Source: Onthophagus taurus (Eukaryota; Arthropoda; Insecta; Coleoptera; Scarabaeidae). Taken from it: DNA of 64,000 nucleotides. Positions 14,774-59,429 of this stretch are shown piece after piece. The position numbers and the translations under genes are program-made. Every line of letters begins with the position of its first letter. The first letter of the stretch is position 1. The notes under the pieces were generated by a model. That model had not been told where the DNA came from and did not search any database. It saw only the letters and a list, made by a program, of their open reading frames with translations. The stretch lies in assembly GCF_036711975.1 (NCBI RefSeq), contig NC_091972.1, positions 6,949,001 through 7,013,000 on the forward strand. Reading direction: 5' to 3'.

Positions 14774-17440
14774 ATGAAGGCAGCCGATATACGACGGACC
14801 CTTTTTGTGCTGCTGCTTTTCTGTGGCGGGCTAATGGTATATTTTTTGTTCCAACAACCAACTACTCTCAACATTCCATCGTTTAACGAACAACAAGCTG
14901 CTACACTTCCAAAAACAGATAAGTAAGTTTTAATCTTTGAAAATTAATTAAGGATTGTTTCCCTAAATACAATGAATAAACTTATTAATTGGTTGCAAGA
15001 ATTGCACAATTATATTATTTTCATTTTATAATAGGTTGGGAACTTTTCGTTCTGATTTGGAGAAATTTGTTACAAGAAAAGTTTCACAACCAAGACTAGC
15101 CGAAGAAATAAAGTAAATTAATTAATTCCAAATATAATATCAAACTGTATTCAACGAATTTTTATTGAATAGGAAATTAAGAAATCTATTATTTCCCAGA
15201 GAACAACAATTCAAAAAAATCAACGACTTTAATTACAAGACTGATAATTATAATACAGCAAAATTAACTGATAAGTAATGCTTTTTGTATTGCTAGAATT
15301 ATTATTTTGTTTTTGGGCTTAATCATTTTACAGAAAAGTAGTTAGAAAATTTTTTGACGTTTTTAAACGTCAATTATAATCCGTTCAAAAAAATCTTTAT
15401 GTCAAAATGACGTTAGGTTGGTTAAAAAAAAAATAACTAAGAGTGTCACAGTTATTTTGACGGTTCGTGTTGGTAACGATCTTTTTTTGAAGTTTAGTCC
15501 GTTTTCTTTTAGAACAGTTTTGTCCACTGTTCATTCTAGATTCGCGCGATATGACCATCATAATATATATAAAATATATTGCCGAATATAATATGAACTT
15601 TAGTAATATGCTCTTTGCTTCAATATATAGATATTAACACATAGTTACATAAATATAGTATATTATAAAATTTTTTAAAATTGTTATTGTATTTATTTTC
15701 AGAAAAACGGATGTACGGTGGACATGGAAATGCATAAATCACCGTTGCGAAAAAATACTAATGTCCGAGTGGTCTTCTGCTAAATCACAATCGCTCGCAA
15801 CGTGCAATATGCTTTGCTCGGAAGTACAACTGTGGCCTTTACCATCGGGACCAATCAAGACGAGCTCCGAGACGGTTACCTTTTCGTTCCAACAAGTCGA
15901 ATTTGAATCGCACGCCAAAGATCCAGCCTTAAGTCTATTGGAACAATCGTACGGGATATTCAATGAAAACTTGGTCACCATCCTTCGACAGCCGTACTCC
16001 GAGAACGCCGCCGCTAATGTTAATAGATTTCGGGTTAAAGTAATTGTCAATCATTCAGAAATTGTTAGATTAAAACTTTCCACGGATGAAAGTTACAATT
16101 TAACCGTAAATCATCAAGGGAATGATGTAATTTGCGCCGTACACGCGAACACTTTTTTTGGGGCTAGACACGGATTGGAAACTTTATCTCAATTAATTTG
16201 GTGGGACGATGGAAATTTAAGGATAATATCGAACGTTTATATACAAGACGTGCCGAAATTTTCTTACAGAGGCGTTATGATAGACACCGCAAGAAATTTT
16301 ATGTCGCTAACTAGTTTAAAAAGATCAATATCCGCAATGTCAGCAAATAAATTAAATGTATTCCATTGGCACATATCGGATTCTCAAAGTTTTCCGTTAG
16401 AGATTCCGAGCGTACCAGAAATACATGAATACGGAGCTTATAATGCCGATTCTTATTATTCAGTTCAAGATGTAAAAGAACTCGTGGAATACGCGAGATT
16501 AAGAGGAGTTCGGGTTGTTATTGAAGTTGATACACCTGCTCACGCGGGAAATGGGTGGACATGGGGTCCAATAAAAGGATTAGGTGATTTAGCGGTATGT
16601 GTAAACGCCCAACCTTGGTATTTATATTGTGGAGAACCACCATGCGGGCAATTAAATCCTGAGAATCCGTACGTTTACGACATTCTTGAAAAAATATACA
16701 CCGACATCTTAGAAATGACTCAGGAAGATGAAATCTTCCACATCGGCGGGGATGAGGTGAATTTGGATTGTTGGGAACAACATATGAATAGGAACATGAG
16801 CGCCGCTAATTACACAGATTTACATAATTTATGGGGAGAATTTACTTTAAAGATACTATCAAGATTACAAAAAGCGAATGGTGGCAAAAAAATTCCATAC
16901 ACGATAACTTGGTCGAGTAATTTAAGTAGACGACCATATAGCTCGAAATATTTAGATAAACGGGATATTGTAGTACAATCTTGGGGGGCTAGCGAATGGT
17001 ATGAAAATAAAGAGTTATTAACAGATGGATACAAATTAATACTATCTCATGTAAACGCTTGGTATCTCGATTGCGGATTTGGTAAATGGAGGGAACGGGG
17101 TGATGCAGCTTGTGATCCATACAGACCATGGCAAACAGTTTATTCCCACCAACCCTGGGGTTACGACACATCATATAAAACTCAAACATTAGGTGCTGAA
17201 GTTTGTTTATGGAGTGAACAAGTGGATGAAGTCTCGCTAGACACGCGATTGTGGCCGAGAGCTGCCGCATTCGCAGAGAGAATATGGACGGATCCAAAAC
17301 TCGAGGTTGATTCTTATGGGATATCTGAAAGTGTTTACACAAGATTGTCAACTCACCGTGAAAGACTGATTTCCCGAGGGATATCCGTCGAGGCTATGTG
17401 GCCTCAGTACTGTACCCAAAATCCAGGAACGTGCCTTTAA
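14774..17440 (+). CDS. fdl: Fused lobes: membrane-anchored beta-N-acetylglucosaminidase (GH20)
   Basis: Four coding exons (14774-14922, 15035-15112, 15173-15274, 15703-17440) join in frame to 688 residues. A signal-anchor helix lies at about residues 9-28 with a short basic cytosolic end, giving type II topology. A linker follows, then TWKCINHRC at the start of the hexosaminidase N-terminal domain, and the GH20 barrel with FHWHISDSQSFP, VVIEVDTPAHAG and FHIGGDEVNLDCWEQH. The GGDE Asp-Glu pair (residues 460-461) is the expected catalytic site for substrate-assisted cleavage. Insect FDL removes the GlcNAc on the alpha-1,3 mannose arm of N-glycans in the secretory pathway, giving paucimannose glycans. 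The anchor and the linker favour FDL over soluble chitinolytic hexosaminidases. Most of the enzyme is encoded by one large exon. Intron 3 carries a dispersed repeat. Confidence 0.93.
15400..15510 (+). repeat. Dispersed short repeat, copy B, in fdl intron 3
   Basis: Contains TGACGTTAGGTTGGTTAA and CACAGTTATTTTGACGGTTC, the reverse complement of the copy at 7120-7225. It is non-coding and lies wholly inside the intron. Confidence 0.6.
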
Positions 17441-19700: not shown

Positions 19701-20290
19701 TAACAAGGAATTACAATTCAATATTGTCTCCCTGAATAACTTCCTTCTGAAGCTACACAGCGCTGGAGATGGTTCTTCCAATCCTCATAACAGTGCTGGA
19801 CTGCGATACTGAAATATCCTTCAGCTAAATATCGTCATTTGAATATCCTTTAAATGACCCTTTTTCGAAGTTTTTCAAGAACCTCTTGATAAAAGTATTG
19901 ATTTTGACCGTTTGACCTTGAGGCACATACTGTTTGGGGATGATTCCATGCATATCGAAAAAACAAATCAACATGCATTTGATCTTCGACTTGCTCATTC
20001 TTGCTATTTTTGGCCTTGGAGAGATTGAAGTGTGCCACTCCATGCTTAAACACCCAAGACTCGTCTCCAGTAATGACACGTTCCAGAAAATGGGTATCGT
20101 TCCACATTTTCATCGGTTCTTGAAGATAACGGCCTTCTACCTCGTGGTTCATCTTCAATCGACTTTCTTCCTTTTGGAAATGCCTTAAGCAAAACCTGGG
20201 CATTTGAGAAAACACTGTCTTCGCAGACCTGCTGAAGTTTTGCTCACAGTTTTTAGAACTCATTTTTAAAACGCACTAGAACAAACTGTT
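19700..20290 (-). mobile_element. Mariner-family transposase fossil
   Basis: The minus-strand frames contain FLERVITGDESWVF and, in another frame, KIARMSKSKIKCMLICFFD, then HGIIPKQYVPQGQTVK and EVLEKLRKRV. This is the catalytic core of classic DD34D mariners, with both D-bearing blocks visible. The frame is broken at least once, and the N-terminal helix-turn-helix is mostly missing. No terminal inverted repeats were pinned down. Confidence 0.8.
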
Positions 20291-41500: not shown

Positions 41501-43577
41501 AAATGTGTACCATTATTTACTAGAGGCAAGTATAAATGGTAAACTGAAGTAAGATACGATAAAAAAAAATGCAGCAGCTGGATATTTTGTGTTAGAAAAG
41601 AATATAGGTCGAATTTGGCATCGAGGACAGCGTCCTTACGTGAAGGGTCAATATGTGCAAATGTAAATTCGCGGATATCTAGATAAGTTGGCAAGAAGTG
41701 AAAAACCGTAGATGAAGTAGAAGTATTAAATCTGGATTGATTAAGCCCCACTCCGACGCAATTAAACCACACCTTACAGATCGCAACACATTTCATCGTT
41801 TGGAAAACTGCTTTGCAATGCTTAATTCTGATAGCATCGCTGTTGGTGCAATTATTTTTAAGAATATGACAAACTTCATTCGTGCTGATGAGAAATGGTT
41901 TTATTTAAAGAAAACTACTTCGCTTACGACGACAATATAGAACCTTATCAAACATGCAAAAATAACACAAAGGTTATGTTTTTGACTGTTGTTGCTCATC
42001 AACGATGGCCATTAATAAAACAAGAATCAGGGAGGTCATTGAATCTGTGACCAAGGTGAATACAGAAACATGATAGTGGATAAACTCCTGCCTGCACTTG
42101 AAGCTAAATGGTCTCGGTCTAATAGTCCTACATCTATTTTTATTCAACATGACAACACTAAACGTAATGTGTTAACCCCTAACAGTCCTAACACTAATAT
42201 ACTAAATCTCGGTTTTTAACTTATTTTTATCAACTGAGACTGAATAACGTCTTCGTACCGCATCAGCAATGCATGATAGAAATCATGAGGTAAATGGCGA
42301 CAACATTAAATTGACCCATTTACACAAAGACGAACTGGTTCGACTAGGATAGGTACCACGTTGTCTTAAATGTGATAGGAACCTCGTCGAAGCGGCTAAG
42401 GCAAAGATTATCACTTAAGTAACACTACTACTATTATTAGGCTAAATAAATGTCTCTAATACTCCCTGATCCATAGGCTGCATAATAGATATACTTTAAT
42501 ATCTCCACTTTGAAGGTCGTCCTCTTTATAATGGAATGGAGCATTATCAATAATGAATAAGGGTTTTTTGGACAAACCTTCATCATGTAAAAATTTTGCC
42601 ACGCTAGGAACGAATTCCTCATAAAGCCAATCATGAAATAAATATGCACTTCTTTGACTCTTGTAATAAACAGGCAGCGTATTCATAACTAAATTTTTGA
42701 ATGCTGTTGGTTTAGCAGACTTTCCTAGTAACATTTGTCTTGGTTTATGACGCCGAGCAACATTACTACAAGCCAAAATAGTTACACACTCTTTACTTCT
42801 TTTGAATCCTGGAGCTGTTGTTTCTTCTTTGGGAGCTAAAATTGAATTAGGTAACACTTTTAAATTTAAGTCTGTTTCATCACAGTTATAAAGTTAGTGT
42901 ATAACATTATTCTTATGCACACCAAGTGACATTTGGAAATTGATTATAACTGGGCAAAATGTTGGTAAAATTTAGAAATCAATAAAAGCTTAGAAAAGGA
43001 AAGTTAAAAATTGTTTTGAAAATGTTCTCTTTCCTGCGACGAGATTCTATTTATCCTACAGCCTCCCCGCAGCGAGTTCATGCAGGATGCAGATATTCCC
43101 TGAATGGGCCACTGTGGAAAGGGGACGCGACGCTTGATCGATACTAGTAGGGCGCCAACAACTCTCGGAAACCAACGAAGCCGAGGAGGGAAAGGGGGGA
43201 AACGCGACCACGAGGAAGTCCCACTTTTGCGTGGGAAGGCGTCTAGCGTGAAAAGGGACTCCAGCAAGTGGTCGTTACCCTCCTCATACTTTCAAAAAAT
43301 GAAAATAAGATTTTTGATTCAATTTAGAATATGAATAAAACTGAAATGTCGTATCTTTTTGGAATTTCATTTGTATCTTAAAAAACAATATTTTTCTTGT
43401 ATGAAATTTATGTTTCAATGCTCCGTGTATTTCAGTTTCGATGAAAACTGATACAAAAATGAAAAACTTTATCCCCCATTCCGCCGAAACGTTGAGCAAC
43501 GTGACCTACATTCGCCCCCATTCAAATCAACTACCCTTTAAAATTCATTCTTAATTCTTACCGATCATATTCAGCAT
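32600..43577 (-). CDS. Syt14: Synaptotagmin-14 (Syt14/16 type, Ca2+-independent)
   Basis: Ten coding exons on the minus strand: 43577-43562, 37448-37236, 36779-36506, 36360-36237, 36168-35959, 35868-35760, 33429-33272, 33216-33053, 32994-32853 and 32800-32600. They join in frame to 536 residues (human SYT14 is about 555). A single helix at about residues 11-32 ends in LYINKRWW, like vertebrate LYINKK. A Ser-rich linker follows, then C2A from about 242 ([10 protein letters not shown]) and C2B from about 394 ([20 protein letters not shown], ending HWMDMKE...CRWHVLLHS). These match SYT14/16 specifically. The Asp clusters for Ca2+ binding are largely absent, as known for this subgroup, so a role in Ca2+-independent trafficking is expected. 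The first exon codes only MLNMI plus one base and precedes a 6.1 kb intron. Introns hold a satellite array and several transposon fossils. Confidence 0.93.
33480..34108. other. Syt14 intron sequence, nothing recognised
   Basis: Part of the intron between the exons at 33429 and 35760. It is moderately AT-rich with no gene or repeat recognised before the hAT-like end at 34109. Confidence 0.4.
34109..35622. mobile_element. Non-autonomous hAT-like element enclosing a satellite
   Basis: The right end, read on the minus strand, begins TAGTGATGGAACGGATAGTG and continues through CCGGATATTCGGC and GGCCGGATATCCG, typical of insect hAT termini. The left end (34111-34160) has a related GGATAGTTACC...ATATCCGGC...GGTCGGATAT series in the opposite sense. 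No transposase is present, and the interior is the tandem array at 34292-35393. Confidence 0.45.
34292..35393 (+). repeat. Satellite-like array: three 363-bp dimeric units
   Basis: Units start with TATCCTCTTTTTAATGCAAA at 34292, 34655 and 35017, and the next unit start is truncated at 35380. Periods are 363, 362 and 363 bp. Each unit is made of two related halves of about 181 bp. One half has AGAGCCGTTTTGAAAAATCA and the other CAAGCCGTTTTGCAAAATAG, followed by comparable TTTGAAG...ATTCG blocks. Adjacent dimers are far more alike than the two halves, so the dimer is the unit of amplification. Confidence 0.85.
37449..37979. other. Proximal part of Syt14 intron 1
   Basis: Contains a 66-codon minus-strand frame (37795-37595) with raised GC content that could be an alternative 5' exon. 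It ends without a convincing donor in phase with the exon at 37448. No other feature was seen. Confidence 0.3.
37980..38640. repeat. Array of palindromic ctagaac units (cruciform-prone)
   Basis: After a 150-bp arm shared with 30500-30635 come about four units of roughly 120-155 bp. Each unit is near-palindromic: GGCTAAACCCGAATGATTCT, then TAGTTCTAGG...GTGTTAGTTCTAG, mirrored by CTAGAACTAACACTAG and GAAACATTCGGATTTAGCC. Units are joined at short inverted ACGTCT...AGACG boundaries. Non-coding. Confidence 0.75.
38641..40300. other. Syt14 intron 1, mostly unassigned
   Basis: Includes GC-richer patches at 39130-39310 and 40010-40140 that stand out against AT-rich flanks and could be regulatory or alternative promoter sequence. 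No protein family was recognised in the short frames here. Confidence 0.3.
40310..40560. repeat. Diverged ctagaac repeat with internal hairpin
   Basis: Flanks carry CTAGAACTACAACTAGAAT on the left and TTAGTTCTAGGTCTAGTG...TAGTGTTAGTTCTAG on the right, the same family as 37980-38640. In the middle is a perfect stem, TCTTCTTCAGAAA (40387-40399) with TTTCTGAAGAAGA (40407-40419) and a 7-nt loop. Confidence 0.6.
40799..41225. mobile_element. MITE with perfect terminal inverted repeats of about 120 bp
   Basis: The left arm, beginning ATACAGCGTGTCCCGTATC (40799-40920), and the right arm (about 41104-41225) are exact reverse complements by eye over roughly 120 bp. The 180-bp interior is GC-richer and non-coding. 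Flanking TA/TAT suggests a TA-type target duplication. Identical arms imply a recent insertion or gene conversion. It lies within Syt14 intron 1. Confidence 0.8.
41590..42230 (+). mobile_element. Mariner-like transposase fossil of the plant/oomycete (DD39D-like) type
   Basis: Frames in order include [71 protein letters not shown] and [12 protein letters not shown], then [12 protein letters not shown]. This matches the layout HxDEKWFYxxK ... IxxQQDNA ... NSPDLNxLDLGFF, best known from DD39D mariner-like elements of plants and oomycetes. It is broken in several places. Confidence 0.6.
42437..42900 (-). mobile_element. Pogo/Tigger-type (DDE_1) transposase fragment
   Basis: The minus-strand frame reads [20 protein letters not shown], then [31 protein letters not shown] and [19 protein letters not shown]. 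This is the first half of the DDE_1 catalytic domain with both the CDET and DNAP(S)H blocks. The N-terminal DNA-binding region is missing. It lies in Syt14 intron 1 on the host sense strand. Confidence 0.8.
43030..43275. other. GC-rich patch close to Syt14 exon 1
   Basis: About 240 bp of markedly GC-richer sequence (for example GAGGAGGGAAAGGGGGG and CGACGCTTGATCG) inside AT-rich intron. No family was recognised. Its place 300 bp downstream of Syt14 exon 1 would suit a regulatory element, but a GC-rich repeat is equally possible. Confidence 0.3.
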
Positions 43578-44040: not shown

Positions 44041-44577
44041 GATGTCATGTTGAAAAGTGAAAATAAGGTCACTTGAAAATGATCAATGAATAAAATGCAA
44101 CAAAGGATTTTTTTAATGTGATGTTTAAGTATGATATATTTAAGATTTGTAGTAAGATCCGTCAGATATTAAACAAACAAATCATAAATATTAATATTTA
44201 TTACAGTTGTTATTATACCTGTCAATAATATCGAATGTTTATATTCATATTTGAGTACTGTCATTTGAAACAACCAACAAAAGATCGTCCTAGCTCGTGT
44301 ATGTCTAATATTTCATGAACAACTGTATAAATCATTTCTTTGACATTTTGACATCAATATTCTCTTAAAAATGACAAAATCTAGAAATAGAAACAAAATC
44401 TTACAGAACCATATTATTTTATGGCTCAATAAAAGCCGTGCAAGATGAACCATCTCAAATCATTTCAGTGTTATCTATAAAAAAGGCAAATCGAAGGTAA
44501 ATCACCAATATTATCAGAATGAATTTCCAAAGAAGAAAAAGAAGAATATAAAACTCAATAACAGTCAATTTTCATTA
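44041..44577. other. Region upstream of the 276-codon gene
   Basis: AT-rich. The frame of the gene at 44578 stays open upstream to about 44443, so its start could lie further left, or an acceptor (ATTTCAG at about 44469) could join an unseen first exon. Confidence 0.35.
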
Positions 44578-45408
44578 ATGGATTCAAAATTACCTTCAAC
44601 ATCGCCCTCAAAATTATTAAAATTAGTAGATAAGAGTAATTTAAAAAGTAAAACTAAAAATCTATTAAAATCAAGATTAAAACATTCCCGCGATGAAATT
44701 CTAAAAAAAAATGTTTCAACCCAGTTGAATACAGCATCCCTACGTAATGGAAAAGACAACGATTTAAATTTATTAAATGACTCAAAATTATCACCGGAAA
44801 TCCAATCAGAAGATAGTTCAACTAATCCATCTGTTTCGTCAGTTTCAAAATATGAACCAACAACGTCTCCGTCACAAACAAAGCGTCAAAACATTGAAAA
44901 TCATTCAAAAATGTACTTAAAAGAAACGAAATTGAAAAAAGAAATCCCATCAACAACTGAACAATCCATGCCATCTACATCTGCATTAATAAGAAAAGAT
45001 GATTTCGCATACCCAGAAATTCAACTGTCTCCAACTTTACTCCCACTACTAACGGAACATAGACCGAATCATTTAAATACCAGTTTAAACCCATCAAATC
45101 CAATGAATCGTTTACAAGAAAGAAGACATCATTCAAGACGCAGAGCAATTATGTGTTTACCAACTCCAACTCCTCCGCCGTTATTCGATGATAGTGGTTT
45201 ATATACTGGTTCACTACCTCAATCTTCTAGAAACAGATATCAATCACCAGCTGTTGAATTGGCAGAAGAATCTCAAACCTTGGGAATGGTTCGTTTCTCG
45301 TATAGAGCAGCTTTAGCAGAAACGAGAAATGAAAACAACGAACAACAATTGATACATTTAAACGAAAGGGGTCGATGGGTTCGAAGGAATAGAGAAGGAA
45401 GACGATAA
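44578..45408 (+). CDS. Paralogue of the C-terminus of the giant repeat protein; function unknown
   Basis: An intact 276-codon frame. The first 120 residues are Lys/Ser/Asn-rich and low complexity. The last 140 align with the C-terminal end of the protein encoded on the other strand at 46657-53800. Shared motifs are (Y/H)PEIQLSPTxLP, PTPPPLF followed by GLxTG and RNR, FxYR, NEN and a final basic LNxRxR...R tail. It lacks the membrane head and the 20-residue repeats. It could be a truncated duplicate with its own promoter, or a last exon whose upstream exons are not visible. The intact frame and the conservation of scattered motifs at otherwise high divergence suggest selection. No known family was recognised and no function is proposed. 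Confidence 0.65.
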   Translation: MDSKLPSTSPSKLLKLVDKSNLKSKTKNLLKSRLKHSRDEILKKNVSTQLNTASLRNGKDNDLNLLNDSKLSPEIQSEDSSTNPSVSSVSKYEPTTSPSQTKRQNIENHSKMYLKETKLKKEIPSTTEQSMPSTSALIRKDDFAYPEIQLSPTLLPLLTEHRPNHLNTSLNPSNPMNRLQERRHHSRRRAIMCLPTPTPPPLFDDSGLYTGSLPQSSRNRYQSPAVELAEESQTLGMVRFSYRAALAETRNENNEQQLIHLNERGRWVRRNREGRR

Positions 45409-46430: not shown

Positions 46431-46656
46431 TGGGTTGGATTTTACATGAAGAATAAATCCCCAAGTTGATATATACTTAGTAGGCTGATTAGCCTTTTAT
46501 CAGACCTTGCATGGTGCAAGTCTATTCCAGATATTCTTTTATTCATATTATAATTATATGACACATATACATTTTAAAGGCAAAATTCTTTAATTAAATT
46601 AAACGAATACAAAATAAAAAATTCACTTCTAAAACTTTTAAAAATCCAAATTTTTT
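46431..46656 (-). terminator. 3' flank of the giant repeat gene
   Basis: TTTATT at 46538-46543 gives AATAAA on the minus strand about 115 bp after the stop codon. The remainder is unremarkable. Confidence 0.45.
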
Positions 46657-49600
46657 TCAATTGCCTCTTCGTTCTCTTTCATTATGTCGACCTCTTCGGC
46701 TACTTCTGGCATTTAAATCTCTAGATTCTTGGTCATCATTGTCGTTTTCATTATTTGCTTCTGTTACAGTTGTTCTATAATTGAAATGTACCCCATAGTT
46801 ATTTCGACGTCGTACATTTGGTGGTAATTGAGCAGGGGGTATCGGATGTCTATTTCTAGGTGGTTGACCAATAGTACCAGTTAGTAATCCGCGTCCACCA
46901 AATAATGGTGGAGGAGTCGGATTAAAGACGTCTGCAACTGGTGGGACACGATGAGAAATAAAATCATGTAGACTTTCTCCTTGACTTATTTGAACAGTTG
47001 GCGGTGGAAGAAGAATAGATGGTGACCGAGTGCTTGGATAAAATGGATTTATGTTTAACACAGTATTCGAATCTTCACGTACTGTATTTTCGTTTATTGG
47101 TGGAAGTTGAGTTGGAGATAATTGAATCTCTGGATGTACGAAATGATCTTCTCTTGTTGGTAATTCATTTTCTACTGAAAATCTGGAATGGGGTTCTGAA
47201 CGATTTTCAACTTCAAAGGGAGTGTCTTGGCTACGATTTTCAATTGGAGATCTTGAACGTTTTGTTTCTAGTGGAGACGTTGATGGTGAAAGGATATCAA
47301 AATGTCCTGTTTCTGGTAATTCTTTTAAGTGTGGTTCGGAGAGTGTTGGTGTTCCTAAATTTTTCTCAACCGCTCTAAGAGATAAATTCGATGATTTCAT
47401 TGAAATTTCTTCTGGTTTAACTGATACACTTTCGGAAGGTAAATTTGAATCATCTTGAACCATACCTTGTGATATTATATTTGATTTTAAAAGATTTTCA
47501 CTATTATTATCTAATGATGCTCCAACTACTTCTGGAATTTTATCTGATGGCTGCTTTTGATATAAAGGTTTTGAATCATCTAATAAAGTTTCTTCTGATT
47601 TGATTTCTTTTTGCTCTTCTGATACAATCAGCTTAGACCCTAAAGGTAATTTTGATTCACGTAAAGGCAGATTTGTTACTGAATCTTTAGAAGCACTCAA
47701 TTTTGAAGTAGTACTTAATGGAGCTACACTAATTTCTTTTGGTATCTCATTTTGAGATTGGTGTGAAGTTTGTTTTAAATCGTAACCAGTTGTTTGTTGA
47801 AATGAATCTAACATCTGTGAAGTTGTTTCCGGTAAATCTAAATCCCGGAATGGATAATCAATATCAATTTTGGTTGTTTCAATTTCTTCAGGAAACGTAT
47901 CCTGATGTTGTTTGGTTGCAATTACTGATGATTCTGCAACTTCATCAGGTGATTCTGCTATCTGTATTTTTGATTTATCTAATGTTGGTTCTGACTGAAT
48001 CTCCGCTGTTTCAACTGGTTTTACTTCTGATGACAATTTTGGAACAATTAATGGAAGTTCTGTAACGTTTCCTAAAGATGTATTCAGGTGTATTACTTTC
48101 ATTTCTTCCGAAATTTTTGATGGTGACTGTTCTCGTTTTAAAGATTCTGATTCATGTTCTTGTATGTCAGAAATTTTAGTTGGTGACTGTTCCAGTTTTG
48201 GAGGTTGCAAATCTCTTTTCTGTATGTCAGAAATGTTTGTTGGTAAGACCTGAAGCTTTGGAGGTTGTAAGTCATCTTTTTCCACGTCAGAAACTCTTGT
48301 TGCTGATTCTTCCAGTTTTAGAGATTGCGAATCACGTTCTTGTATATCTGATGTTTTTGTTGGTAACTGTTCCAGTTTTGTAATTTCTACATCATCTTTT
48401 TGTATGTCGGAAATGTTTGTTGGTAAAGCCTGAAACTTTGCAGTTTGTAAGTCATCTTTTTCCATGCTAGAAATGTTTGCTGCTGACTCTTCGAGTTTTG
48501 GATATTGCGAACCACGCTCTTGTATGTCAGAAGTTTTTGTTGGAAAATCTTCTAGATTTGTCCTTGGCAAATCGTGTTTCTGTATGTCAGAAGGACTTGT
48601 TGGGTACTCTTCAAGCTTTGGAGGTTCCAAGTCGTGTTTCTGTATGTCTGAAGTTTTTGTTGGTAACTGTTCAAGTTTTGTACTTTCTAAATCATCTTTT
48701 TGTGTATCAAAAACGTTTGTTGGTGACGCCTCAAGCTTTGAAGCTTGTAAGTCATCTTTTTCCATTTCAGAAATTCTTATTGGTAACTCTTCCACTTTTG
48801 GAGATTTCAAATCATCTTCTTGTATGTCAGAAGTTTTAGTTGGAAAATCTTCTAGTTTCGTACTTGGTAAATCATGTTTCTGTGTGTCAGAACGAGTTGT
48901 TGGATACTCCTCAAGCTTTGGAAGTTCCAAGTCGTGTTTCTGTATGTCTGAAGTTTTTGTTGGTAACTGTTCAAGTTTTGTACTTTCTAAATCATCTTTT
49001 TGTGTATCAAAAACGTTTGTTGGTGACGCCTCAAGCTTTGAAGCTTGTAAGTCATCTTTTTCCATTTCAGAAATTCTTGTTGGTAACTCTTCCACTTTTG
49101 GAGATTTTAAATCACCTTCTTGTATGTCAGAAGTTTTAGTTGGAAAATCTTCTAGTTTCGTACTTGGTAAATCATGTTTCTGTGTGTCAGAACGAGTTGT
49201 TGGATACTCCTCAAGTTTTGAAGGTTCCAAGTCAAGTTTCTCTATGTCTGAAGATTCTGTTGGCTTTGTACTTTTTAAATCATCTCTTTGTATGTCAAGA
49301 ATATTCGTTGGTAACGCCTGAAGCTTTGGAGATTGTAAGTCTTGTTTTTCCATTTCAGAAATTCTTGTCGGTGAGTCTTCCACTTTTGGAGATTTCAAAT
49401 CACCTTCTTGTATGTCAGAAGTTTTAGTTGGAAAATCTTCTAGTTTCGTACTTGGTAAATCATGTTTCTGTGTGTCAGAACGAGTTGTTGGATACTCCTC
49501 AACTTTTGAAGGTTCCAAGTCATGTTTCTCTAAGTCTGAAGATTTTGTTGGTGACTGTTCCAGCTTTGTACTTTTTAAATCATCTTTTTGTGTGTCAGGA

Positions 49601-52600
49601 ATATTCGTTGGTAACGCCTGAAGCTTTGGAGATTGTAAGTCTTGTTTTTCCATATCAGAATTTTTTGTTGGTGCCTCTTCCAGTTTTGGAGATTTCAAAT
49701 CACCTTCTTGTATGTCAGAAGTTTTAGTTGGAAAATCTTCTAGATTCGTACTTGGTAAATCATGTTTCTGTGTGTCAGAACGAGTTGTTGGATACTCCTC
49801 AAGTTTTGAAGGTTCCAAGTCATGTTTCTCTAAGTCTGAAGATTTTGTTGGTGACTGTTCCAGCTTTGTGCTTTTTAAATCATCTTTTTGTATGTCAGGA
49901 ATATTCGTTGGTAACGCCTGAAGCTTTGGAGATTGTAAGTCTTGTTTTTCCATATCAGAATTTTTTGTTGGTGCCTCTTCCAGTTTTGGATATTTCAAAT
50001 CACCGTCTTGTATGCCAGAAGGTTTTATTGGCAGATCTTCTGGTTTTATACTTAATGAACCAAGTTTTTGTATATCCGCACTTCTTGTTGGAAAATCTTC
50101 AAGCTTTGCTGTTTTCAAATCTTGCTTTTGTGTACCAGAAGGTATTGTTGGTGACTCTTCCAATTTTGTACTTTCTGTATCATGTTTTTGTGTGTCAGCA
50201 ATTTTTGATGGTAACTCTTCATGCTTTGGAGTTTGCAAATGTTGTTTTTGTGTATCTGAAGTTTTTGTTGGCAAATCTTCTAGTTTCGTACTTGGTAAAT
50301 CATGTTTCTGTGTGTCAGAACGAGTTGTTGGATACTCCTCATGTTTTGAAGGTTCTAAGTCATGTTTTTCTATGTCTGAAGATTTTGTTGGTGACTGTTC
50401 TAGCTTTGTACTTTTTAAATCATCTTTTTGTATGTCAGGAATGTTCGTTGGTAACGCCTGAAGCTTTGTAGTTTGTAAGTCTTGTTTTTTCATATCAAAA
50501 CTTTTTGTTGGTACCTCTTCCAGTTTTGGAGATTTTAAATCACCTTCTTGTATGCCAGAAGTTTTTATTGGCAGATTTTCTGGTTTTGTACTTAATGCAC
50601 CAAGTTTTTGTATATCCGGACTTTTTGTTGGAAACTCTTCAAGATTTGCTGTTTTCAAATCTTGCTTTTGTGTACCAGAAGGTTTTGTTGGTGACTCTTC
50701 CAATTTTATACTTTCTATATCATGTTTTTGTATGTCAGCAATTTTCGATGGTAATTCTTCATGCTTTGGAGATTGCAAATCTTGTTTCTGTTCTTCAGAA
50801 GATTTTGTTGGTAACTCTTCGTCAATTGGAGTTTGCGAATCATGTTTTCGTCCTATAAAAGATTTTGTTGGTATCTTTTTCAGTTTTGGAGTTTTCCCTT
50901 CATTTTTTTGTTTCTTAGAAGATTTCTTTGGTAACGGTTCCGGCATTGGTATTTGTAAACCAGGTTGTTGTAAGTCAATGGATTTTATGGGTAACTCTTC
51001 CGACATTGGAGGCTCTTCTAGTGCAACTAAAGATGTTGGTATCTCTTGTTGTTTAGGAATTTGCAATTCAGATTTTTGCTCAAAAGAAATAACTGTTGGT
51101 ACCTCATTTAATTTAGAAGTTGTTGTTGACAAATTTTCCAATTTTGGAGTTTGCAAATCATGTTTTTCTATATCAGAAGATTTTGTTGGTATTTCTTCTA
51201 TTTTTTCTTCTTTTATTGATGGTAGCTTTTGTGATACATTATCACTTGGTAATTCACCGTACCATTCAGACATTTTTTCTGAGAAAAACGGGTCATGACG
51301 CATTTCAGAAAATATTGTGGATACTTTCTGCTCCGCTTCATCTTGATCCGAAAAAGTACTTAACATACTTTTTTGACCAAGATTTTCTTGAAGATGTGGT
51401 TTTGGAGATTTTATTGGTAACTCTTCTAGTTGCTCTTCTTTTATTGGTGATAATTTCCTTGGTAAAATACCTTTAAATCTACTTTCATTAAGACTATCAA
51501 TTCCTCTGGCATCAATAGGTTTTATTCTATTATACCATTCAGAAACTTTTTCAGCAAAGAATGGATCTCGATCCATGTCAGAAAGAATTCTTGCTACAGT
51601 ATGCAAACTTCGTTTTTCGGTAGTACTTATTAACACAGATGTACTAGAGCTTGAAATATTTTTTTCCGAAGAAGTGGATGCAATTTGATTTCGTTGGATT
51701 GGCTCAACTTGCGCTGGAGTTCCCGTACTATGATGTGCTACTCCTAACGGTTTTGGACTTTCTAAATCAGATTTTTTTAATGACTCTTCAAGTGGTGACT
51801 TCTCGTATAAATCAGAAATGTTTCTCGTGAAGAATGAATCTTGGCCCATTTCATTAAATATTTTATCTTCATCATTTGCATATTCATTACCAACATTTTG
51901 ATGTCGTTGGGTTGGCTCAACTTGCGCTGGAGTTCCCGTACTATGATGTATTAGTCCCAAAGTGTTTGGACTTTCTAAATCAGATTTTTTTTGTGACTCT
52001 TCAAGTGGTGACTTTTCGTACCAATCAGAAATGTTTCTCGTGAAGAATGAATCTTGGCCCATTTCATTAAATATTCTATCTTCATCATCTGCATATTCAT
52101 TATCAATTTGATTTCGTTGGGTTGGGTCGACTTGCGTTGGAGTTCCCGCACTGTGATGTGTTAGTCCTAAAGTTTTTGGACTTTCTAAATCAGATTTTTT
52201 TAATGACTCTTGTGGTGACTTTTCGTGCCAGTCAGAAATGTTTCTTGTGAAGAATGAATCTTGGCCCATTTCATTAAATATTCTATTTTCATCATCTGCA
52301 TATTCGTTGCTACCAGGAATTTGCTCACTAGGACTTTTAAAATTAATATCTTCGTTGCCTTTGCTTATACCCATCTGATTGTTTTGAATTAATTGTTTTA
52401 TAACATCCAAAGGAATTTCTTTTACCCCACCAGCAGCACCAAGCAACTTATCAACCGCAACTTTAGGTGGAATAATCTTTTTCTCGTCAATTTTATATTC
52501 ATCTGTATCAACTTTACCTACACTGAAATATCCAAATTTCTCTTTAATACTATATCCACTTGGTCCACTAAGTTCACTTTGATTATCAACATCAAGGTTT

Positions 52601-53800
52601 GCGCCCGACTTTTCATCAAATAAATATCGAAGATTATCATCTAAATCTAGATTAGATGCACTCAAGAATTCAGGTAGAACAGGCTTAAATTCATAAATGT
52701 TATGATCACTACTATTTTGATCATCATCATCGTTAATGGACGATTCATATTTTCTTCGTTTTCTTGGTATTTCTTCTGCAAATTTTACGTGTGGCGAATG
52801 TGGGTGCCTCTCAAAATAGAGGTTGTGAAGAGATTGCACAGATCCATGAATTCCAGCGTGGGGTTTTGGAAAATAGTCGCCACCGGAAACATGTTTTTCC
52901 CGGACCGTTTTTGATATTCCGGTTATTTTAATTATTTGGACATAAAAATCTGGTGAAATACACATTCTTAATAAAAGGACAGCTGTATGCGCAACCCAGG
53001 CAAAAACACATAATGGAATTGAAATTCGTAAAATCACAATTGCCAAATAAATATTGACAGTTTTTTTAGTCCATGGTACAGAAAAGGCATTCATATCCTG
53101 GTTACATCTAAAATGAAAAATCTTGTATATAAGTAACAAATAAATATTTTATTTTTTACTTTTTCGTATGAAGATAAGGTTCAAATTGATTACAAAATAC
53201 GGTTAAACCATCCAATTGTAATAAAGCTGCAGTTGTGATTACAATAGTCATTATAATTGATACAATAAAAGTTGGAAAAACATGTTTCCACGGTTGGACA
53301 AATCTAAAATATATTGACATAAAAGTAAATATGGAAAATTAAAGTCTTTTAAATTACGAATCGCTTTCTTCTCCAGCTCCTCCGGATCTACTCCAGTAAA
53401 AAAATACCGCCAATATAAAACCGCTTATGAAACTAATCAGCCACACACTAAACGTATACTCACAATAAGAATCTTTACCCCATTTCGTTTCAGATAAACT
53501 GATGCATACATTATGTGGTAATACGTGGTTAACGTCGTAGTGTTTTTCGTGAATACGGAAAAAATATAAATTGGCGTATAAAGGACATTTGTGGTGATAT
53601 CCCAGCAATACAACATAAAATTGGGCGGCATTTACTATTCCACTAATAGCGGCCAAAATTTGTATTACCAAATGAAGAACTAAAAAATTATTGGTGAAAA
53701 ATATTTCTTGAAAAAAATCTTTTTGATTACCTTTCCAAACTATATTCACGTCTTTACTTGGTTTATCAACCATTACATAATAAATTCTATAAACAACCAT
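46657..53800 (-). CDS. Giant tetraspan (TMEM179-like head) protein with long repeat tail; undescribed
   Basis: Three coding exons on the minus strand, 53800-53358, 53303-53160 and 53107-46657, join in frame into about 2345 residues; the last exon alone codes over 2100. The head has four helices at about residues 39-67, 117-136, 157-176 and 213-243. It also has a loop with HHKCPLYANLYF and KWGKDSYCEY, then VFCNQFEPYL. Helix order, the Cys/Trp loop and the third-helix region recall TMEM179, but the match is from memory and moderate. After CVFAWVAHTA comes a cytosolic or luminal tail: an acidic region, three 69-residue repeats with FFTRNISDW(H/Y)EKSP, two degenerate copies, about 48 copies of a 20-residue repeat (consensus KLEExPTKxSDIQKxDLxxP), and a conserved C-terminal domain with PEIQLSPTQLPP and PTPPPLFGGRGLLTG. 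A shorter paralogue lies inverted at 44578-45408. The frame is intact throughout, which argues for a functional protein. Its role is unknown. Confidence 0.8.
48120..51000 (-). repeat. Coding 60-bp tandem repeat with 300-bp higher-order units
   Basis: About 48 units of 60 bp (20 residues), with one short deletion near 49262 that keeps frame. Blocks of five units form a 300-bp higher-order repeat, best seen by comparing 48541-48840 with 48841-49140 and then the blocks starting about 49141, 49429 and 49729. Within a block neighbouring units differ, while equivalent units in successive blocks are nearly identical. Antisense frames stay open only because the unit is a multiple of three. Confidence 0.9.
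51680..52312 (-). repeat. Three coding 69-residue repeats
   Basis: Each copy reads NEYA(D/N)DExxIFNEMGQDSF, then FTRNISD(W/L)(H/Y)EKSP, SDLESP and TGTPxQVxPxQR(N/H)Q. They are nearly identical at DNA level. Two further diverged copies of just the core (MDRDPFFAEKVSEWY and MRHDPFFSEKMSEWY) lie closer to the 20-residue repeats. Confidence 0.85.
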
Positions 53801-54233: not shown

Positions 54234-57200
54234 TTAAGACGGATGTTGGGTACGAACATGTTTATTCCTATCACCTTTTTGTCGAAATTGTCTCCCACAA
54301 ATATCACAAGGATACGGACGTTCATCGGTGTGAATTCTACGATGATTGTTGAGTGCGTCAGCTCGGAAGAATCGCTTTTGACAAATCTAAAAGGATTTTA
54401 TGAGAAGGTTATTATAAAAAGGATTTTATTAAATGATTTAATGAAAAATAAGGAATAGAAGGGATATGATCTTATTTTTTCTTACATCACAACCATATCT
54501 ACGATCATTTGTGTGGATTAAACGGTGCTGATAATAAACGGAACCGGTTAGGAAACATTTATCACAGACGGAACATTTAAAAGGACGTTCTCGGGTGTGG
54601 ACTTTTCTAATGTGATCTTTTAAATCTGGTCGGATCGTATAACGAGCTTCGCAACCTTCGTGGGGACATGCAAAAGGTTTTATACCTAAAAGGAAACATA
54701 AAAAGATTTTCATAAAAAAAAATTATATATTACCTTGATGAAATCTCATATGTTGCCATAAATGGGAAGTTTGTGAATAACATCTTTTACAAATTTCACA
54801 AACGTACGGTTTTAAACTTTGATGAGCTCTACTATGGATTAATAAAGCTTTTGCACTATGAACAACCTTAAAAAAATAATTTAATTATATTACAATATGA
54901 AATAAATGTAAATTTTTATGTGGTTAATATTTTTCTTCAAACGTTGGAATGACAGAATATTAATAGAGTAATTAATTGAGAAATCACAAATTTCGTTAAA
55001 CAACTAGCACTTGTTTTTGACTATTTACTTTATCCTAAAAGTCATACAAAACGTGTTTATGAATAATTTTATTCATACATAGAAAAAATAATAAAATATC
55101 ACTATGAAGTGTTATAGCCAGGCTGAGGCTCATCACCGACTATACAAAGAGCTATGTAGAAGATGCACCTTGCTTTTGAAAGCTAACCAAGCTTTCAAGA
55201 AAAAAAAAAGAGACAAAATTGCAGAAAAACGGAAAGCGAGAAAGAAATGGCAAACCAATAGAACTCCTAGTGATAAAACTAAATTAAATAAAATAACAGC
55301 CGAATTAAGAGCATTAACAGATAGCCATAAACAATGTAATATTCAAAATTACTTAAAAGATCTTACTGACGATGCCAGTACTGATTATTCTTTGTGGAAG
55401 CCAAGAAGGAAGGTTAAAATTCCAAAAACACATACACCTCCAATTCGAAATAGTAATGGAAATTGGGCTAAGAGCAATCCAGAAAAAGTTAATTTGTTTG
55501 CTGAACATCTGAACAACTATGTTAAATAGTGTTCCAGCGTAATTCAAAGTGATCAGCAGTATAATATACTATGTGTAAGAATGAAAGAACTGTATTATGA
55601 AATACAAAAACTTAATATAAAGAAATCAGTAGACTATGACCAATTAATGGAGAAACATTGAAACACCTACCAAAACGGGCGATTACAAAATTATGACACA
55701 TAATTAATGCTGCTTTTAAACCGAAATACTTCCCAAATATATGGAAAGAAAAAGTTTTCAGCAATGAGAAAGCAAATCAATAAAATTAAAACGGACCTGC
55801 AATCAAGGGCAGCAACGTAATTTGCTAGAAATGGGACAAGACTAGGATCAACAAGACAAATCTTTCCGATATCTCGATAGGACTACACGGACGAGAAAGA
55901 ACTTTCCGGAGAAACGGAATGGATTAGACTAAAACATAATCCAAAATAGAAGCTTCTTTTAGTGGCGTATACAAGTAATTTCGTGATGTTATAAATGCAA
56001 TGAGACATATAAACGCATAATTAACAAAGTATAGAAATTAAAAACTATTTGAATACTAAGTTTAACGTTTGAAGAAAAAATTAAATTAAAAATTCATACT
56101 TGTCCACATTCTTCACATTTAAACTTAGCGGGCTAAGTGTAAGAATGAAAGAACTGTATTATGAAATACAAAAACTTAATATAAAGAAATCAGTAGACTA
56201 TGACCAATTAATGGAGAAACATTGAAACACCTACCAAAACGGGCGATTACTAAATTATTACACATAATTAATGCTGCTTTTAAACCGAAATACTTCCCAA
56301 GTATATGGAAAGAAAAAGTTTTCAACAATGAGAAAGCAAATCAATAAAATTAAAACGGACCTGCAATCAAGGGCAGCAACGTAATTTGCTAGAAATGGGA
56401 CAAGACTAGGATCAACAAGACAAATCTTTCCGGTATCTCGATAGGACTACACGGACGAGAAAGAACTTTCCAGAGAAACGGAATGGATTAGACTAAAACA
56501 TAATCCAAAATAGAAGCTTCTTTTAGTGGCGTATACAAGTAATTTCGTGATGTTATAAATGCAATGAGACATATAAACGCATAATTAACAAAGTATAGAA
56601 ATTAAAAACTATTTGAATACTAAGTTTAACGTTTGAAGAAAAAATTAAATTAAAAATTCATACTTGTCCACATTCTTCACATTTAAACTTAGCGGGATGT
56701 TCCAATTCTCTATGATTCTCCAAATCAGCAATACTATTCCAAACGGTTACGCAACGTTCACATTGATATTTATACCCATCATCAACAACAGCATTCAAAC
56801 GTTTATTTTTACTTATTTGCCTGGAACATTTCCGTTTCCGGCCGCGTCGTTTCTTTTCATTTTCGCCACCGTTCCCATCCGATTTACTGAATCCACTCGA
56901 TTCGCTGCATATTTCCGATTTAATAACAATATCGCTATTGTCATCGCCATTTTCTTTGTTACTACTACTTTGATTACCATCATCGTTTTCTTTGTCCTCT
57001 TCTTCGGTGTTCATCGAAAACAATACGTCTTCGATTAATTTAACGATTGCTTCTTTGTTCTTATCTTTAGTTAACGAAACGTAAACTTTTGGCGTATAAT
57101 GTTTCTTTTTATATTTATGGGTATAAAGAATTTCGTGTGACTTAAATGTACGATCGCAATATTCGCAATACGTTAATTTTGGGAGATAGAACAAATTCGC

Positions 57201-58375
57201 TTGGTCCGTACACTTTGTTAACCAATGCTTTGAAGCGAAAACGTACGAATCAAAAGTTTCGCAACATGTTATGCATTCGTAATTAACATCGGTGGTGTGT
57301 TGTTTTTGGTGAGCTAATAACCATCTTTTATCGGCGTAAGTTCGGTTGCAATATTCACATTGTAATAATTGTTCGGTTAAGAATTTTTGAACGTTTTTAT
57401 TCGATGGTGTATCTTTTTCTTGAAACCCACCACTTTGCTCTAATAAATCGGGTGCTACTGTTGATACATTTTTAATTTCGTCGTTTAAAGCTTTGCAATC
57501 TTCGTTGTCATCATCAGTTTTATCGACACCGTTTTTATTGATATGTAAATTTTCTGCACAATTTTCTACGTGTTTATTAGCTGATGCTGGTGTGGCAAAA
57601 ACTTGATAACAATTTTCGCATTTCCAAACTGTAACATCGCTTCTATAAAACTTTGAAATATCACCTGCTTTTTTACAATGATTTTCTTTATGTATTCTTA
57701 AACGATTCTCACTAACAAACTGTTTGTTACAATGTTCACATACATTAATATTTGTTTCATCATGACTTGTCTGATGACGTTCTAAATTATTTTTACTTAC
57801 AAACTGTTTTCCACACGTTGAACAATCAAATTTCATTCTCATCCCTTTATCGATATCTTTTATATCAACATTCGGTTTTAAGACAACTTTTTCAGCGTTA
57901 AATTCGCACTGGTGTCTTTGATATTGATATTTCGTTGGGAAATTCGTGTCGCAATTCTGGCAAGCTATCATAGTTGGAATATTAGGTATCTTAGATTCCC
58001 TTTTCTGATTATGCTGAGAATTAACTGTAGGTTTACAATCCATTGAGTCAGTTTCGGATAGTACATTTTCATCCAAGCTTCCGATTTTAATCACTCTTAT
58101 CGAAGAATTATCAACATTTACCATTGGGAGTTTAAAATGTAATTTTTCACTTTGAAAATGAGAATTCGGTGATACATCCGGACTTACCGGCGTTTTCATG
58201 ATGCATTCTTGTGACATATTGTCGATTTCGTACTCTAGAGTACTCACCGTTGTATCAGGGACCATTTGATGAACGTTTATAAAAGATAAATCACTTGCGT
58301 TCATCTTCAATGCAACTAGATGATCCGAATTGGGCTCAACGATCACATTTGCTATGCTTCCTGGTTCATAGAGAT
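54234..58375 (-). CDS. C2H2 zinc-finger protein with about 14 fingers
   Basis: Visible coding exons on the minus strand are 58375-56664, 54866-54734, 54685-54486 and 54386-54234, all in frame, giving about 732 residues from the acceptor at 58375. About nine fingers, several atypical or with long spacers, lie in the big exon (for example [19 protein letters not shown]), together with a basic [10 protein letters not shown] nuclear signal and an acidic Ser/Asn stretch. The 3' exons encode five closely spaced fingers ending [20 protein letters not shown]. It is probably a nuclear DNA-binding regulator; the orthologue was not identified. The frame is open at the acceptor ([15 protein letters not shown]), so translation starts either at Met 58346 or in an upstream exon. 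A candidate is ATGG at 59279-59276, which would give MDLYEPG. The 1.8 kb intron before the 3' exons contains a jockey LINE and a 564-bp tandem duplication. Confidence 0.85.
55104..55760 (+). mobile_element. Jockey-like LINE fragment in the zinc-finger gene intron
   Basis: A 141-codon plus-strand frame includes [40 protein letters not shown] and [20 protein letters not shown], followed by a broken [15 protein letters not shown] stretch. This is the linker between endonuclease and reverse transcriptase of jockey elements and the start of the palm. The copy is truncated at both ends. It is not a host gene. Confidence 0.7.
55574..56696. repeat. 564-bp tandem duplication reaching into a zinc-finger exon
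   Basis: Copy 1 (55574-56132) and copy 2 (56138-56696) begin with TGTAAGAATGAAAGAACTGT and end with TTTAAACTTAGCGGG, at about 99% identity. Copy 2 covers the splice donor at 56663 and the last 33 coding bases of the large exon, so copy 1 carries a spare copy of that donor inside the intron. The 5' part of each copy is LINE sequence. Confidence 0.9.
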
Positions 58376-59429
58376 CTGGAAAATGATCACGTAGAATACC
58401 ACGAAATTATTTATAATAACAAATTTTATTTTTTTTGGTAACTAGGTAATCCAGATTGTCGTTGCTATGCTGACAAAAACTAACCAAAAATGTTGACATT
58501 TTAAGTTAATATGTGATGTTGACATTTTAGGTTACCTTTCAAAGAAATGTATAAATCAAAAGATTTTTCTTCAACAGTAAAATACGTGTACATTTTCGCA
58601 AATTTCTTTTTCTACTCCAAAATGAAATTCCCCGCAGTGAATAAGCAAATTTAATGCTTACGAATATGGCACTAAAATTTTTAAACGATGACCGAACAGA
58701 GTGGAGTTCCACGAAATACCAACTTAAAGTAACCTAAAAATATAAAATCACTACCTTTACTTAAATTAATTAACATTCTCTTTATAAATAAAACAAGACT
58801 TATGTATCATAAAAAGATACATAAAAAACATTAATTGTTATTAAAATTTTATTTAAAATAATCAAATAGTTAAAGTGAAAATTTTAGGTTAAGTATAGAT
58901 ACCTGCAAAGTGAGATTAGAATGTATCTTTAACAATAAAAATTTTATTGAAATTAATGTTGAAAGGTTACATAATAAATAAATATTTCTTCATATTCATA
59001 ACGAATTTTCTTTTTAAATAAATAAAATCTTCCTATAAAGGCAATATTTTAATTTAACCTAACCAACCTGAAGTTGACTCGAGTTGACTCAAAAATACCA
59101 ACCTAAATCATCAAAATCATAAAATGCAAGCTTAAATTAATACAATGGGGTCATACACGATTTTTTTTTTATTATATTTTCTGAAAGTTTATATAAAAAT
59201 ATAGTTACCGTTATTTTTTTTTTTTTTATTTTCGAACAAAGTCATTGTTAAAAAAATTATTGAAAATTTATATACCCATTTGCGCTTTTAAAATTCCCGC
59301 GTTGATGACGTACGATTCTCACTTTTGCGTCCCCTGCTCCCCGCTCAAATGCGAGAAAGAGATGAACGTCATTTAGGTTGTATTGAAAAGAGATAGAGTG
59401 TTTGTAGGTTATGTTTATTATGTTTTGTT
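58376..59429. other. Upstream of the zinc-finger exon; probable 5' intron
   Basis: AT-rich. Composition becomes GC-richer at 59280-59400, where the minus strand would read into ATGG followed by GTATAT at 59279-59274. This is a possible first coding exon for the zinc-finger gene with its promoter just beyond. Confidence 0.3.

What the first reader, a model, noticed from the sequence alone, without database searches (positions are those of the whole stretch)
46657..53800. A 2345-residue tetraspan protein with an enormous repeat tail
The sequence shows an intact three-exon gene. It joins a four-helix membrane head, similar in layout to TMEM179, to more than 2000 residues of acidic, Lys/Ser/Pro-rich repeats and a conserved C-terminal domain. 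I know of no described protein with this architecture. Keeping a 6.45 kb exon free of stops in such repetitive DNA implies selection.
Basis: partly seen in the sequence, partly recalled or inferred. Interest (0 to 1): 0.82.

Follow-up and report, generated by a model that had tools for sequence, protein, structure and literature searches.

The report
Four-helix membrane protein, giant repeat tail
An animal (probably insect) gene encodes a small four-helix membrane anchor carrying a 2,100-residue repeat-rich tail, which I think acts as a long flexible tether inside the cell, although its expression and its partners remain to be shown.

Summary
Three exons on the minus strand (53800-46657, GT-AG introns of 54 and 52 nt) encode exactly 2,345 residues. 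The fourth membrane helix and the whole tail share one exon and one open frame, so head and tail are not joined by a doubtful splice. The tail holds three 71-residue repeats, about 49 twenty-residue units and a C-terminal stretch shared with a headless paralogue next door (44449-45408, +). Selection keeps the frame: neutral simulations of repeat divergence give 15-21 stops on average, none is seen, and dN/dS is 0.57 against 0.82 +/- 0.11. Amino-acid constraint is moderate. Two points need correction: the 'conserved C-terminal domain' is short conserved motifs without a confident fold, and TMEM179 kinship rests on a sequence recalled from memory, a lead only. Best mechanism: a membrane-anchored, probably disordered cytosolic tether, comparable to Futsch's repeat region; a PPxxF motif in both paralogues suggests Homer as one partner. 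No insect collection could be searched, so conservation, expression and novelty stay untested.

The parts
53358..53800 (-). Exon 1: short N-terminus, helix 1, loop with C72, C99, C113, helix 2
53304..53357 (-). Intron 1, 54 nt, GT-AG
53160..53303 (-). Exon 2: helix 3 and start of second loop (C185)
53108..53159 (-). Intron 2, 52 nt, GT-AG
46657..53107 (-). Exon 3, 6,451 nt: C197, helix 4 and the entire tail to the stop codon, one open frame
52951..53064 (-). Helix 4 (residues 211-248), in the same frame as the tail
51676..52308 (-). Three 71-residue repeats (residues 463-673); first ~30 residues of the unit predicted helical (pLDDT 68-78 by ten-residue block)
51145..51627 (-). Stretch with two diverged copies of the same helical motif (DPFF....SEWY)
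48130..51195 (-). Array of about 49 twenty-residue units (type ELPTKTSDIQKHDLESPKLE, residues 834-1855), with 100-residue higher-order period
46660..47157 (-). C-terminal region (residues ~2180-2345) shared with the neighbouring paralogue; conserved runs PEIQLSPT, PTPPPLF, RNR, VxFxYR
46900..46914 (-). PPPLF (residues 2261-2265), fits the Homer EVH1 ligand pattern PPxxF
44449..45408 (+). Paralogue of the C-terminal region without head or 20-residue array; open frame of 319 codons, first ATG at 44578, tail-to-tail with the main gene
46538..46543 (-). AATAAA polyadenylation-like signal 114 nt after the stop

Best explanation
A real, protein-coding gene with a single-copy head: a four-helix membrane anchor whose ~2,100-residue, acidic and probably disordered C-terminal tail (no Cys after residue 245) lies in the cytosol and works as a long flexible tether or scaffold. 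The 20-residue array acts as an adjustable spacer (fully stretched ~0.37 micrometres, whole tail ~0.75, my arithmetic at 0.36 nm per residue; a relaxed coil would be far smaller), the five DxFF helical motifs nearer the membrane are repeated docking sites, and the conserved motifs at the far end (PEIQLSPT, TPPPLF) hold a partner away from the membrane. Homer is my first guess for the TPPPLF site. Shown here: gene model, repeats, frame retention, moderate purifying selection, the paralogous C-terminus, a Homer EVH1 domain in the genome. Inferred: expression, cytosolic topology, disorder, tether function, any partner.
For: Gene model exact and intact. In-frame codon usage resembles two neighbouring genes in the four gene parts tested and the paralogue: correlation 0.65-0.74 in frame, 0.17-0.46 in other sense frames. 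Units five apart (33 pairs): dN/dS 0.57, other five readings 0.61-1.29; neutral simulations 0.82 +/- 0.11, 2 of 500 at or below the observed; simulated stops 14.8 on average (minimum 5 in 500 runs) or 21.0 (minimum 8 in 1,000), observed 0. Internal indels between copies are 3 and 12 nt. Loop cysteines (72, 99, 113 / 185, 197) lie on the side opposite to the tail, which has none. C-terminus: alignment score 241 to the paralogue against a maximum of 121 in 200 shuffles, yet no confident fold (pLDDT 52, pTM 0.14). Helical motif of the 71-residue unit. PPxxF in both paralogues; Homer EVH1 gene at G000:C7:4.80 Mb.
Against: No RNA or protein evidence. Loop charges do not decide the topology. PPxxF occurs in 681 of 2,000 shuffles of the tail, so alone it is near chance. 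The headless paralogue suggests that the C-terminal stretch does not need a membrane anchor. One antisense reading also reaches omega 0.61, and antisense codon correlations reach 0.58 for the head. Between the paralogues third codon positions are not the most changed (89, 61, 77 differences at positions 1, 2, 3 in 158 codons), so that pair gives no clear sign of purifying selection. The 33 unit pairs share units and are not independent. AlphaFold had 2 and 5 sequences only, so low confidence is weak evidence of disorder.
Confidence: 0.5

Rival explanations
1. Only the head (and perhaps the stretch after helix 4) does the work; the tail is a tolerated, expanding disordered repeat, kept open only because stops or frameshifts would make a truncated or unstable membrane protein.
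For: Amino-acid constraint in the repeats is moderate (0.57 against 0.82 neutral). The array shows recent exchange: two neighbouring 300-nt blocks are 98% and two others 96% identical, while units at the left edge are as low as 65% to their best match. Honeybee and fly Futsch have different repeat units between conserved ends (PMC2821913, passages read).
Against: C-terminal motifs are conserved in a paralogue that has no head; the five DxFF motifs keep six invariant positions in their first 30 residues while the two diverged units are only 23% and 28% identical to the first sequence.
Confidence: 0.27
2. The tail faces outside or a lumen (inverted topology) and is a mucin- or matrix-like brush.
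For: 18 N-x-S/T sites and high Ser/Thr/Pro content in the tail; charge counts are indecisive.
Against: Would put the Cys-bearing loops in the cytosol; tail has no Cys and is rich in Lys and S/T-P sites (47); basic RKRRK cluster after helix 4.
Confidence: 0.08
3. Two transcription units: a short tetraspan protein and a separate tail protein, joined only on paper.
For: A free-standing C-terminal paralogue exists; no RNA data.
Against: Helix 4 and the tail are in one exon and one open frame, so a separate short tetraspan would need an unseen splice or end inside exon 3.
Confidence: 0.06
4. The array is a satellite-like artefact or dead gene whose openness is accidental.
For: Repeat-borne open antisense frames of 247-295 codons exist in the same DNA.
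Against: Over the coding sequence the other five frames carry 62-245 stops, the coding frame only its last; the unique tail parts are open too (log10 P about -20 at the window's stop frequency); zero stops against 15-21 expected in the repeats.
Confidence: 0.03

Closest known systems
TMEM179 / TMEM179B (four-helix proteins of unknown function)
   Same: Four helices, WG....C in loop 1, GxTxxC in loop 2 and AWxAxT in helix 4, judged by alignment with a recalled TMEM179 (score 61, shuffles 34 +/- 5.5, 2 of 1,000 reach it)
   Different: TMEM179 as recalled (199 residues typed) has no giant tail. PMC4815072 (passages read): no conserved Pfam domain, no function found.
Futsch / MAP1B (insect giant microtubule-associated protein)
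   Same: Long middle region of tandem charged repeats that differ between fly (66 copies of ~37 aa) and honeybee (18-aa and 42-aa units) between conserved ends (PMC2821913, passages read)
   Different: Futsch is not a four-helix membrane protein (recalled); the units were compared only by reading the printed consensus.
Neurofilament heavy-chain KSP sidearm
   Same: Acidic, Lys/Ser/Pro-rich disordered repeats with S/T-P sites (recalled; of the papers only the listing was seen)
   Different: Here 11 KSP and 47 S/T-P in 2,095 tail residues; no filament rod found in the Pfam scan; membrane head instead.
Homer ligands with PPxxF (for example group I metabotropic glutamate receptors)
   Same: C-terminal PPPLF in both paralogues; motif definition from PMC11237882 (passages read)
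   Different: Single site, binding not tested; chance rate high.

Membership tests
TMEM179 family | Four transmembrane helices with short ends | tested here: inconclusive
   Four hydrophobic spans yes; short C-terminal end no
TMEM179 family | Match to a curated family profile | not testable with these tools
   No Pfam model in the held copy hits a recalled TMEM179; PF26158, recalled as such a family, is not held
TMEM179 family | Sequence similarity over the four helices and loop cysteines | tested here: inconclusive
Tetraspanins, claudins and other 4-helix families of Pfam | Pfam match | tested here: not met
   No family at E <= 1 for the head; at E <= 10 only Sdh_cyt, E 1.6, 9.3 bits against a cut-off of 25.8
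Futsch/MAP1B | Conserved N- and C-terminal MAP1 regions | tested here: inconclusive
   No MAP1-named family in the Pfam scan of exon 3 and head; whether the held Pfam has such a model was not checked
Extensin-like proteins | Pfam Extensin_1 above its cut-off | tested here: not met
   30.3 bits against a cut-off of 105; I take it as composition-driven
Homer ligands | PPxxF motif bound by Homer EVH1 | tested here: inconclusive
   Motif present and conserved in the paralogue; binding not testable; 681 of 2,000 shuffles contain one

The most novel reading that the evidence does not exclude
A new class of membrane tether: a TMEM179-like tetraspan anchor fused to a length-adjustable disordered tail, grown by unequal exchange, that can reach hundreds of nanometres into the cytosol when stretched, with docking helices nearer the membrane and a Homer-type ligand near its tip, whose C-terminal module has also been split off as a free partner or competitor (the neighbouring paralogue).
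Probability: 0.12. Interest if true: 0.8.

Novelty: new variant of a known kind. Interest (0 to 1): 0.5.

Why it matters
TMEM179 and TMEM179B had no function on record in PMC4815072 (passages read). A relative with a giant cytosolic tail, if the kinship holds, would give a handle: partners could be pulled down with the tail. The gene is also a clean case for asking whether the length or the sequence of a fast-turning repeat tail is selected, since the array mixes near-identical blocks (98%) with old edge units, and a headless copy of the tip lies beside it.

Tried and rejected
Pfam scans of head, exon 3, paralogue and four neighbouring frames: no family for head or paralogue at E <= 1, three for exon 3 (Extensin_1, OCIA, DUF5832), each below its cut-off and set aside. 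PDB sequence search with the head: no hit at E <= 10. Contig scans: viral with the head (2 stretches matched a pattern) and with the C-terminus (5), prokaryote with the head (8); none confirmed by tblastn, as expected for an animal gene. Own-genome searches, whose counts may be lower bounds by the tool's own statement: the head gives 4 rows, 3 from its own exons, the fourth at E 8; the C-terminus gives itself, one paralogue and a 37-residue match at E 1.2, of whose locus I opened the first 600 of 3,105 bases and went no further; a query from residues 247-824 gives 3 rows (E <= 1) and one 100-residue block of the array 12 rows (E <= 0.01), all inside this gene. Telomere patterns, tried to place the organism: no match for TCAGG x6, two overlapping rows at one place for TTAGG x6; organism left undetermined. 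AlphaFold on the C-terminus and on the 71-residue unit: low confidence overall (mean pLDDT 52.2 and 58.6); no structure search was run on them. The spliced head was not submitted, since the tool takes what the window's DNA gives letter for letter. The codon-usage comparison used a hexosaminidase frame that was off by one and is discarded; one search replaces it. Repeat indels: of 8 pairs compared, 4 have no gap, 2 show a 12-nt gap (I take it as one event seen twice), 1 a 3-nt gap, and 1 a 5-nt gap that is an alignment-end effect. The star simulation uses a 5-unit phase that does not fit the first units well; one search is the cleaner test. Literature, listings only (papers holding the terms / listed): 3/2, 84/30, 15/15, 1/1, 15/8, 841/5, 0/0; no title or abstract start shown describes such a protein.

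Full report
What is there. The window lies in a 290.8 Mb genome of 33 contigs. On the minus strand, 53800-53358, 53303-53160 and 53107-46657 splice with GT-AG junctions (introns of 54 and 52 nt) into 2,345 codons and a stop at 46657. The start context is AAAAAATGG and an AATAAA follows the stop by 114 nt. The frame of exon 3 is open for 2,163 codons, against 593 for the next longest of 8,324 stop-to-stop stretches in the window. Because helix 4 lies in exon 3 in the same frame as the tail, the join between membrane part and tail needs no splice.

Anatomy. Kyte-Doolittle spans mark four helices, at residues 32-67, 113-137, 152-186 and 211-248, and none after. Cysteines lie at 72, 99, 113 in the first loop and 185, 197 around the second, two more in the helix 4 span (229, 245), and none in the remaining 2,100 residues. 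After a unique stretch come three 71-residue repeats (463-673), two diverged relatives of their first 30 residues (about 702 and 793), then about 49 units of 20 residues (834-1855) with a 100-residue higher-order period, a unique stretch, and the C-terminal region. The tail has 270 K+R, 387 D+E and 47 S/T-P sites.

Is it more than chance? Three tests agree. (a) Codon usage in frame resembles that of the neighbouring hexosaminidase and zinc-finger exons in all four parts of the gene tested (0.65-0.74), while other sense frames give 0.17-0.37; antisense frames reach 0.58 for the head and at most 0.42 for the other three parts. (b) Between units five apart (33 pairs, which share units and so are not independent) dN/dS is 0.57; the other five readings of the same DNA give 0.61 to 1.29, the 0.61 being one antisense frame. 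A neutral simulation with the observed transition rate and base composition gives 0.82 +/- 0.11, with 2 of 500 runs at or below the observed. So amino-acid constraint is real but moderate. (c) The same simulation yields 14.8 stops on average (minimum 5), an earlier one of 1,000 runs 21.0 (minimum 8), and none is seen. Of 8 repeat pairs compared, 4 have no gap, two show a 12-nt gap, one a 3-nt gap and one a 5-nt gap that is an end effect.

The array turns over. Residues 1496-1595 and 1596-1695 are 98% identical in DNA, 1220-1319 and 1320-1419 96%, 1040-1139 and 1220-1319 94%, 1596-1695 and 1696-1795 82%; the two further comparisons of that call (64% and 57%) are, as I read them, out of register or at the right edge. 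Edge units are 65-85% like their best partner. A homogenised centre with older edges is what unequal exchange leaves. The tail's length is therefore likely to vary between individuals (inference).

The neighbour. A 319-codon frame at 44449-45408 (+), tail-to-tail with the main gene, aligns to residues 2025-2344 with score 241 against a maximum of 121 in 200 shuffles. It shows neither head nor 20-residue array. Over 158 aligned codons, 58 residues are identical, 36 of these with the same codon; second codon positions differ least (61), but first positions (89) differ more than third (77), so this old pair gives no clear measure of purifying selection. Its in-frame codon correlation is 0.73. Conserved residues fall in short runs, PEIQLSPT, PTPPPLF, RNR, VxFxYR. 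AlphaFold on the two sequences finds no confident fold (pLDDT 52, pTM 0.14), with two helices of low confidence. I read this as conserved binding motifs rather than a domain; with two sequences that is weak evidence. The own-genome searches show no second head and no other C-terminus at a convincing E-value.

Kinship of the head. No Pfam family matches at E <= 1 and no PDB chain at E <= 10. TMEM179 itself has no conserved Pfam domain according to PMC4815072 (passages read), and a recalled TMEM179 hits nothing in the held Pfam. The alignment with that recalled sequence scores 61, with 2 of 1,000 shuffles reaching it, and again 2 of 1,000 when the hydrophobic layout is kept. It pairs a WG....C, a GxTxxC and an AWxAxT. 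This favours distant kinship, but the comparison sequence comes from memory and the test must be redone with database sequences.

How it may work. With Cys-bearing loops taken as outside, the tail is cytosolic (inferred; charges do not decide). I propose a membrane-anchored disordered tether: five helical DxFF motifs nearer the membrane (pLDDT 68-78 by ten-residue block over the first 30 residues), a spacer of 20-residue units, and a motif-bearing tip. The PPPLF in both paralogues fits the PPxxF ligand pattern of Homer EVH1 (PMC11237882, passages read), and the genome encodes a Homer EVH1 domain (best PDB match Homer 1DDV at 1.1e-45). PPxxF also appears in 681 of 2,000 shuffles of the tail, so only its retention in the paralogue speaks for it. 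The nearest working analogue is Futsch, whose repeat units differ between fly and honeybee while both ends are conserved (PMC2821913, passages read). The Pfam scan gives no sign that this protein belongs to that family, though I did not check that a MAP1 model is held.

Limits. No animal proteome, transcriptome or relative genome was available; the window's genome 'has no relatives here'. Conservation, expression, topology and partners are open. 'Insect' is my reading of the gene set and intron sizes and was not tested. The claim of a new architecture is provisional: searches of the paper library (listings only and several cut short by the list length) showed no description, which is weak evidence because uncharacterised orthologues may sit in databases unseen here.

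Noticed in passing
44449-45408 (+): Headless paralogue of the tail's C-terminus, basic rather than acidic (45 K+R, 30 D+E after its first ATG), apparently an inverted partial duplication with an open frame
   Followed up: partly
42459-42893 (-): DDE_1 transposase fragment (pogo/Tigger type by eye) about 1.6 kb upstream of the paralogue; it may bear on how the duplicate arose
   Followed up: no
19825-20275 (-): Mariner-like transposase remnant split over two frames, judged by eye
   Followed up: no
15659-17440 (+): Hexosaminidase (GH20) with its catalytic domain in one open frame
   Followed up: no
48434-50471 (+): Open antisense frames of up to 295 codons carried by the repeat array, a reminder that repeats alone can hold frames open
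   Followed up: yes
54240-58406 (-): C2H2 zinc-finger exons ending about 440 bp upstream of the finding's start codon on the same strand (end judged by eye; 56661-58406 scanned)
   Followed up: no
whole genome: No perfect 30-base TCAGG run and a perfect TTAGG run at only one place (C3:12.2 Mb), so the usual insect telomere repeats seem absent or missing from the assembly
   Followed up: no
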